Source: an uncultured Candidatus Nemicrothrix sp.
Lineage (GTDB): Bacteria; Actinomycetota; Acidimicrobiia; Acidimicrobiales; Acidimicrobilacustridaceae
Direction of reading: 5' to 3'
Assembly: GCA_903867185.1 (NCBI GenBank)
Contig: CAIPQK010000216.1
Coordinates: 1-36,023, forward strand
Length of the DNA stretch: 36,023 nt
Positions 33,603 through 33,738 of the stretch are shown in pieces. The position numbers and the translations under genes were made by a program. A model generated the notes under the pieces. It saw only the letters and a list, made by a program, of their open reading frames with translations, ran no database searches and had not been told where the DNA came from. Position 1 is the stretch's first letter, and the number at the start of each line of letters is the position of its first letter.

Positions 33603-33608
33603 TAGATT
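33603..33608 (+). promoter_or_regulatory. Putative -10 box TAGATT of tRNA-Leu
   Basis: TAGATT lies 43 nt before the mature tRNA 5' end, a usual distance for a precursor leader. No clear -35. The rest of 33484-33651 shows nothing else recognisable. Confidence 0.4.
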
Positions 33609-33651: not shown

Positions 33652-33738
33652 GTCGGAGTGGCGGAATTGGCATACGCGCTAGACTAAGGATCTAGTGCCC
33701 GCAAGGGCGTGGGGGTTCAAGTCCCCCCTCCGACACCA
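33652..33738 (+). tRNA. tRNA-Leu, anticodon AAG, CCA encoded
   Basis: The acceptor stem is GTCGGAG (33652-33658) with CTCCGAC (33728-33734), discriminator A and encoded CCA. The anticodon stem CTAGA/TCTAG encloses the loop CTAAGGA, so positions 34-36 read AAG. The long variable arm TGCCCGCAAGGGCGT marks a class II tRNA, and discriminator A fits leucine. The T arm is GGGGG TTCAAGT CCCCC. It reads CUU and, if A34 is deaminated to inosine, CUC and CUA as well. AAG is an unusual leucine anticodon for bacteria. Confidence 0.95.

What the first reader, a model, noticed from the sequence alone, without database searches (positions are those of the whole stretch)
33652..33738. tRNA-Leu with the rare bacterial anticodon AAG
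The loop CTAAGGA flanked by a perfect CTAGA/TCTAG stem gives anticodon AAG. Bacteria usually read CUU/CUC with a GAG anticodon, and A34 is normally confined to tRNA-Arg(ACG). If TadA modifies it, this lineage would have extended inosine decoding to leucine; if not, an unmodified A34 reads CUU. CUU codons look common in this window's genes.
Basis: partly seen in the sequence, partly recalled or inferred. Interest (0 to 1): 0.55.

Follow-up and report, generated by a model that had tools for sequence, protein, structure and literature searches.

The report
Leucine tRNA switched to inosine decoding
A genus of lake bacteria has rebuilt one leucine tRNA to look like the arginine tRNA that bacteria normally edit to inosine, and most members examined have since dropped the leucine tRNA that normally reads CUA, so they probably read leucine codons in a partly eukaryote-like way.

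Summary
Window 33652-33738 (+) is a tRNA-Leu with anticodon AAG. No tRNA-Leu(GAG) was found in the genome. It is not a sequencing error: 18 of 21 genomes of the genus carry AAG, and one, G014, has the ancestral GAG.

Three results go further. (1) Against G014's GAG gene, G012's AAG gene differs in the anticodon arm only at positions 32, 34 and 38. The new loop, CUAAGGA, equals the TadA substrate loop of tRNA-Arg(ACG), CUACGGA, except at position 35. (2) tRNA-Leu(UAG), the normal CUA reader, was found in only 2 of the 18 AAG genomes. Its site beside clpP is empty in 14 of 17 genomes examined; a tree implies three losses. CUA is still used. (3) tRNA-Leu(AAG) occurs in at least 11 other genera of the class.

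Best reading: TadA edits A34 to inosine, and IAG plus CAG read all CUN codons. Inosine was not shown. Bacterial tRNA-Leu(IAG) is known in Bacilli, which keep UAG: a new variant of a known kind.

The parts
33652..33738 (+). tRNA-Leu(AAG) gene, 87 nt, CCA encoded
   Evidence: ARAGORN; RF00005, 55.7 bits
33684..33690 (+). anticodon loop CTAAGGA (positions 32-38); anticodon 33686-33688
   Evidence: loop tallies; same as the genus tRNA-Arg(ACG) loop CTACGGA except position 35
33679..33683 (+). anticodon stem, 5' side CTAGA
33691..33695 (+). anticodon stem, 3' side TCTAG
33603..33608 (+). TAGATT, a possible -10 element upstream of the tRNA
   Evidence: read by eye; a TAGATT- or TAGAGT-like block stands at a similar place in many genus and family loci; the consensus scan found no promoter, so weak

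Best explanation
The gene descends from the ordinary tRNA-Leu(GAG). In the ancestor of most of this genus G34 became A, and bases 32 and 38 became C and A, so that the loop copies the TadA substrate loop of tRNA-Arg(ACG) except at base 35 (shown by comparison). TadA then deaminates A34 to inosine (inferred). The resulting IAG tRNA reads CUU, CUC and CUA (inferred from wobble rules), while tRNA-Leu(CAG) reads CUG. That made tRNA-Leu(UAG) dispensable, and it was lost three times within the sampled genus, this genome included (empty site shown; the count rests on one small tree). Leu CUN is then decoded as bacteria decode Arg CGN: one I34 tRNA plus one C34 tRNA.
For: Gene and anticodon. Own tRNA set: Leu AAG, CAG, UAA and CAA only, while the Ala, Pro, Thr, Val, Gly and Ser(UCN) boxes each keep G34, U34 and C34 tRNAs. 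Genus, 21 genomes: AAG 18, GAG 1 (G014), neither found 2; UAG in 3 (G008, G012, G014). Outside the genus the homologous Leu gene is GAG in all 28 genomes in which I decoded it, of 40 searched (12, 16). G014 GAG and G012 AAG differ at 5 of 87 bases: loop positions 32, 34, 38 and two in the variable arm. A38 is in 33 of 46 distinct AAG gene sequences held and 0 of 23 GAG ones; C32 in 15 of 46 and 0 of 23 (not independent samples). The S. pyogenes TadA motif is YUAMGRA (PMC11472039, passages). With E. coli TadA, each tested change at 32, 37 or 38 blocked editing of an AAG tRNA (PMC11066159, sections 3.1 and 4.1). UAG loss: a CPBP-protease-like gene and clpP are neighbours on one contig without a tRNA in 14 of 17 genomes. 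Tree: G008, G011, G012, G013 form a clade (support 100); G012 (UAG+) pairs with G011 (UAG-), support 95, and G008 (UAG+) with G013 (UAG-), support 77; the other 12 genomes, all UAG-less, group with support 60. CUA is 1.3-3.8% of Leu codons in 8 UAG-less genomes sampled, and occurs 26 times in 13 of 22 window ORFs, among them those that look like FtsH and SecA (names are my reading). A TadA gene is present.
Against: No RNA data: inosine is not observed. tRNA-Arg(ACG), TadA's usual substrate, was not found in this assembly. In B. subtilis tadA is dispensable and unmodified A34 can read all CGN codons (PMC10454642, passages), so losing UAG does not strictly prove I34. In E. coli, A37G abolished the weak (about 15%) editing of an AAG tRNA on an archaeal body (PMC11066159), and this gene has G37, though so does the genus Arg(ACG) loop. 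A38 is not unique to AAG: 4 of 27 distinct UAG sequences have it. Two of 12 AAG genera lack A38 (g62, g47). No single TadA change tracks AAG across the class: residue 108 differs from D in 4 of 14 AAG genera and 9 of 59 other units, p 0.26. CUA use in UAG-less genomes is not higher than in UAG-bearing relatives sampled (0.6-7.2%).
Confidence: 0.8

Rival explanations
1. A34 stays unmodified and the tRNA reads CUU, CUC and CUA by super-wobble, so no extended TadA substrate range is needed.
For: B. subtilis without tadA decodes all CGN codons with unmodified A34 (PMC10454642, abstract and passages).
Against: For an AAG anticodon tested in E. coli, CUA decoding was below detection and CUC weaker than CUU (PMC11066159, passage). 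CUC is the commonest Leu codon here and no other CUC reader was found. Positions 32 and 38 changed together with 34, and A38 recurs in 10 of 12 AAG genera.
Confidence: 0.12
2. A tRNA-Leu(UAG) still exists but lies in an assembly gap, or moved or diverged beyond detection.
For: The assemblies are fragmented (own: 232 contigs). tRNA-Arg(ACG) is missing from this assembly for what looks like that reason. The RF00005 search missed a tRNA-Cys that ARAGORN found. Outside the genus the UAG pattern was found in only 24 of 40 genomes, so the pattern alone misses genes.
Against: BLAST with the genus UAG gene found it only in G008, G012, G014; RF00005 and ARAGORN gave none in own. The site beside clpP is intact and empty in 14 genomes, among them own, G013 (100% complete), G002 (99%) and G019 (98%) (completeness).
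Confidence: 0.06
3. The gene is a pseudogene or assembly error and is not used.
For: None beyond the rarity of the anticodon; the promoter scan found nothing.
Against: Intact tRNA by two programs, the gene conserved in 18 genomes, and no other CUU/CUC reader found.
Confidence: 0.01

Closest known systems
tRNA-Leu(IAG) of Lactobacillales (Streptococcus pyogenes, S. mutans, Oenococcus oeni)
   Same: AAG replaces GAG; TadA edits A34 there (S. pyogenes in vivo and in vitro, PMC11472039; S. mutans culture and S. pneumoniae TadA, PMC13249217; O. oeni as cited in both PMC11472039 and PMC8266599); the loop here fits the S. pyogenes motif YUAMGRA.
   Different: Those bacteria also have tRNA-Leu(UAG), and CUA reading by IAG is 'not required' (PMC13249217, results). 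Here UAG was not found in most of the genus, and the host is an acidimicrobial actinobacterium; the same paper says almost all bacterial Leu(AAG) genes in the genomic tRNA database are in Bacilli.
Bacterial tRNA-Arg(ICG) plus tRNA-Arg(CCG) decoding of CGN
   Same: Two-tRNA box, one I34 and one C34 (PMC3711424, abstract start in a listing); almost the same seven-base loop.
   Different: Amino acid, class II tRNA body, and A35 instead of C35, a position at which E. coli TadA takes no other base (PMC10586758).
Eukaryotic tRNA-Leu(IAG)
   Same: G34 replaced by A34/I34 in the CUN box.
   Different: Eukaryotes use the ADAT2/3 heterodimer (PMC8266599) and also keep a U34 tRNA for the A-ending codon (PMC13249217).

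Membership tests
Bacterial tRNA-Leu(IAG), edited by TadA | tRNA-Leu gene with A34 | tested here: met
Bacterial tRNA-Leu(IAG), edited by TadA | replaces the GAG isoacceptor | tested here: met
   AAG and GAG not found together in any of the 21 genus genomes
Bacterial tRNA-Leu(IAG), edited by TadA | loop fits the TadA editing motif YUAMGRA | tested here: met
   CUAAGGA; motif from PMC11472039
Bacterial tRNA-Leu(IAG), edited by TadA | TadA gene with catalytic HAE and PCxxC | tested here: met
   L042, (motifs recalled); best NCBIfam model is TadA, 145.8 bits, just under its 150-bit cut-off
Bacterial tRNA-Leu(IAG), edited by TadA | inosine at position 34 in the RNA | not testable with these tools
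   no RNA data
Bacilli-type Leu decoding (IAG beside UAG) | tRNA-Leu(UAG) retained | tested here: not met
   own genome and 15 further AAG genomes have no detected UAG gene (own also 5, 11); empty site in own and 12 of those 15; the other 3 were not examined at the site

The most novel reading that the evidence does not exclude
This genus has made inosine obligatory for leucine: with tRNA-Leu(UAG) lost in parallel, IAG plus CAG alone read the CUN box, an Arg-like two-tRNA scheme not seen in the papers read here. tRNA-Leu(AAG) is also present in 11 other genera of Acidimicrobiia, with differing loops and stems and usually A38, so the class probably made this switch several times and offers natural replicates of the first step of the eukaryotic G34-to-I34 expansion.
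Probability: 0.7. Interest if true: 0.68.

Novelty: new variant of a known kind. Interest (0 to 1): 0.58.

Why it matters
How I34 decoding spread beyond arginine is an open question that is hard to test in eukaryotes. Here one living genus holds the ancestral set (GAG+UAG+CAG), the intermediate (AAG+UAG+CAG) and the derived set (AAG+CAG), and related lineages supply further cases. If A34 is edited, CUA reading in these bacteria depends on TadA. A lake isolate outside the genus, IMCC26207, also carries Leu(AAG), so editing in the class can be tested in the laboratory if the culture is kept.

Tried and rejected
TadA residue D108 as the general key. The 18 TadAs found in genus genomes other than G014 all have Ser at the E. 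coli D108 position (17 from genomes with AAG found, plus G005, where no CUN Leu tRNA was found; no TadA hit in G001 and G003), and S. pyogenes has Asn. That looked like a rule. Over 14 AAG genera and 59 other units it failed: non-D in 4/14 versus 9/59, Fisher p 0.26. Tyr at 148 (3/14 versus 1/59, p 0.021) and non-R/K at 152 (6/14 versus 9/59, p 0.032) are weakly enriched, but five positions were tested, neither survives Bonferroni correction, and genera are not phylogenetically independent. Residues 26 (p 1.0) and 110 (p 0.15) showed no significant difference. Rows dropped before that count: G129, G142, G396, G227, G199, G233 (in genera with AAG but without a pattern match themselves), second copies in G251 and G215, G437, and four PDB sequences. 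Of the 59 other units (G014 counted as one) a GAG gene was decoded for 28; for the rest, absence of AAG rests on the class pattern search or was not tested. Two of the 14 AAG genera (g111, g181) are AAG by pattern only.

Loss of tRNA-Arg(ACG): not found in own, but 12 of 21 genus genomes have a match. Partial 3' copies nearby and a match that begins at a contig end in G019 suggest an integration site that breaks assemblies. In G008, G011, G012 and G013 it follows tRNA-Ser(GCT). In own, similarity to G008 stops at base 557 of contig C76, just past that Ser gene, and only 556 bases of contig remain. I treat it as a gap; this is an inference. CGU, CGC and CGA make up 519 of 642 Arg codons in the window ORFs, so something must read them.

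Class-wide count: the pattern matched 65 of 395 genomes and 16 of 184 genera; the reversed control pattern matched 8 genomes by my count. Two of the 16 genera (that of G053, whose Leu gene is GAG, and that of G063) look like chance matches; 12 genera including this one were confirmed as Leu(AAG) by ARAGORN, two (g111, g181) were not checked that way. The number of independent switches was not determined. The two genes beside the window tRNA were not found beside Leu(GAG) of G014 or the sister genera, nor beside the AAG gene of G008, G011, G012, G013, so homology there rests on the tRNA sequence.

The BLAST also gave 72-74% hits of 56 bases in G008, G011, G012, G013 and G014 that I did not identify; two of these genomes lack UAG and three have it. 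Not examined at the clpP site: G010, G017, G018 (AAG, no UAG found by pattern or BLAST) and G005.

Full report
What is there. The window is contig 216 of a 2.57 Mb assembly of 232 contigs, probably a metagenome bin (completeness 100, contamination 1.07). ARAGORN finds a single tRNA in it, tRNA-Leu(AAG) at 33652-33738 +, and RF00005 scores it 55.7 bits. The loop is CTAAGGA in a CTAGA/TCTAG stem. The class is Acidimicrobiia by record titles; no call names the genus.

The tRNA set. RF00005 gave 44 hits in the own genome, all decoded with ARAGORN. Leu: AAG, CAG, UAA (on two contigs) and CAA. Neither GAG nor UAG is there. Ala, Pro, Thr, Val, Gly and Ser(UCN) each have G34, U34 and C34 genes, so the U34 gap is special to Leu CUN and to Arg, where ACG was also not found (see Tried and rejected). 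The RF00005 search is not exhaustive: a tRNA-Cys found by ARAGORN on L026 is not among the 44. The absence of GAG and UAG therefore also leans on BLAST and pattern searches.

The genus series. A pattern for the four CUN-reading Leu anticodons over the 21 genomes of the genus (reversed control 0 in all) gave: G014 GAG+UAG+CAG; G008 and G012 AAG+UAG+CAG; 16 genomes, own included, AAG without UAG (CAG found in 14 of these 16, not in G002 and G010); G001 CAG only; G005 none. BLAST with the genus UAG gene found it in G008, G012 and G014 alone. Outside the genus, the homologous Leu gene is GAG in all 28 genomes in which I decoded it (12, 16), of 40 searched; the other 12 were not decoded (G056, with an abnormal 5' half, reads GAG by eye).

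The UAG loss is real. In G008 and G014 the UAG gene sits between a CPBP-protease-like gene and clpP; in G012 it is beside clpP with other genes between it and the CPBP-like gene (the names CPBP and ClpP are mine from the sequences). A clpP search found the gene in 17 of 21 genomes at E 1e-90 or better. In 14 of those 17 the two genes are neighbours on one contig with no tRNA between them; 13 of the 14 are AAG genomes and the other is G001. A tree of ClpP, CPBP and TadA from these 17 genomes (TadA missing for G001 and G003), with G014 imposed as outgroup, has G008, G011, G012, G013 as a clade (100), G012 with G011 (95), G008 with G013 (77) and the other 12 together (60). If UAG was never regained, this needs three losses; the nodes at 100 and 95 already force them.

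The loop was remodelled. G014's GAG gene and G012's AAG gene differ at 5 of 87 bases: gene positions 33, 35 and 39 (tRNA positions 32, 34, 38) and 47 and 56, which look like a compensated pair in the variable arm. The result, CUAAGGA, equals the genus tRNA-Arg(ACG) loop CUACGGA except at position 35. Among distinct gene sequences held, A38 is in 33 of 46 AAG, 0 of 23 GAG, 4 of 27 UAG and 0 of 7 CAG; these are not independent samples. The editing motif of S. pyogenes TadA is YUAMGRA (PMC11472039, passages read). In E. coli, each tested change at 32, 37 or 38 blocked TadA on an AAG tRNA (PMC11066159, sections 3.1 and 4.1 read). An A38 gain is what selection for TadA recognition would predict; that is inference.

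Codons. In 22 ORFs of the window that I judged real (9,942 codons), Leu is CUC 359, CUU 282, CUG 175, UUG 140, UUA 33, CUA 26 of 1,015. CUA occurs in 13 of the 22. In eight UAG-less genomes sampled, own included, CUA is 1.3-3.8% of Leu codons; in AAG+UAG genomes G008 and G012 2.0% and 2.1%; in GAG relatives 0.6-7.2% (crude ORF choice, about 20 kb each, 9 kb for G014). So CUA use did not rise. With GAG gone, the commonest Leu codon, CUC, has no cognate tRNA among those found unless A34 becomes inosine.

TadA. The genome has a TadA gene at C211:26800-27237, between tRNA-Ser(GGA) and tRNA-Ser(CGA), and one weaker deaminase-family match at C158 that looks like RibD (my reading). The 18 TadAs from genus genomes other than G014 (G005 among them; none found in G001 and G003) have Ser at E. 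coli position 108, Tyr at 148 and Leu at 152. In the S. aureus complex the 108 residue bonds to the 2'-OH of U33 and F148 stabilises G36; R26 and R152 narrow the C35 pocket in E. coli (PMC10586758, passages and one section read). That fits a pocket widened for A35, but across the class no residue is a rule.

How widespread. A Leu(AAG) pattern over 395 class genomes matched 65 of 395 genomes and 16 of 184 genera. ARAGORN confirmed AAG in 12 genera from 10 families, this genus included. In 10 of the 12 the loop has A38; g62 has U38 and g47 G38. One of the 12 (g144) has a gene identical to one in this genus, so it is not an independent switch or is a binning error. A scan of named genome contigs with a GTCGRAG-type pattern gave 86 stretches, 80 of them listed, among them IMCC26256 (complete, CP011489.1) and IMCC26207; PMC5962788 (passages) calls the latter a freshwater isolate, 'Candidatus Limnosphaera aquatica'.

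What is known. PMC13249217 (abstract and results read) reports that almost all bacterial Leu(AAG) genes in the genomic tRNA database are in Bacilli, that AAG and GAG do not occur together in a Lactobacillales family, and that those bacteria also have UAG. PMC8266599 (passages) says bacterial I34-Leu had then been reported only in O. oeni. My ten paper searches listed no paper, by title and abstract start, on Leu(AAG) in Acidimicrobiia or on a bacterium lacking Leu(UAG) beside IAG. Several of these lists were cut, and subscription papers are mostly not held, so this is not proof of absence.

Verdict. Real gene, real switch, real loss of the CUA-reading tRNA at its site; editing by TadA is the best but unproven explanation (0.8). 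A new variant of a known kind.

Noticed in passing
L242 (G002:C21:26805-26854), L244 (G001), L246 (G008), L245 (G011), L239/L243/L247 (G019): Partial 3' copies of tRNA-Arg(ACG) lie about 3.4-8 kb from the full gene in G001, G002 and G008, and on other contigs in G011 and G019, which suggests that this gene is an attachment site for integrating elements in the genus.
   Followed up: partly
L429 (G145:C7, contig of 19,028 bases; same length as SHUY01000032.1, Baikal-deep-G22): A genome of another family carries a tRNA-Leu(AAG) identical over 87 bases to that of G004. Its surroundings differ, though a distant (25%) homologue of the window's flavin-monooxygenase-like protein lies beside it. Horizontal transfer of a tRNA gene or a binning error.
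   Followed up: partly
   Followed up: no
L177, L176, L427, L199, L396, L402, L383, L382, L364 (TadA of G014, G023, G055, G059, G148, G226, G235, G342, G374): Asn replaces Asp at TadA position 108, the key residue of laboratory-evolved adenine base editors (PMC10586758), in nine genomes in which no AAG was found; GAG was decoded in four of them.
   Followed up: partly
L224 (G056:C10): A tRNA-Leu(GAG) whose 3' half is normal but whose 5' half does not match, so ARAGORN misses it; broken gene or assembly fault.
   Followed up: no
L263-L275 and further places (g108, family f46, genomes of about 1 Mb): 37 of 42 genomes of this genus of small genomes match tRNA-Leu(AAG); the 13 with loci have loop UUAAGGA. 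In the one sampled (34% G+C) CUA is 13% of Leu codons. UAG was not tested there.
   Followed up: partly
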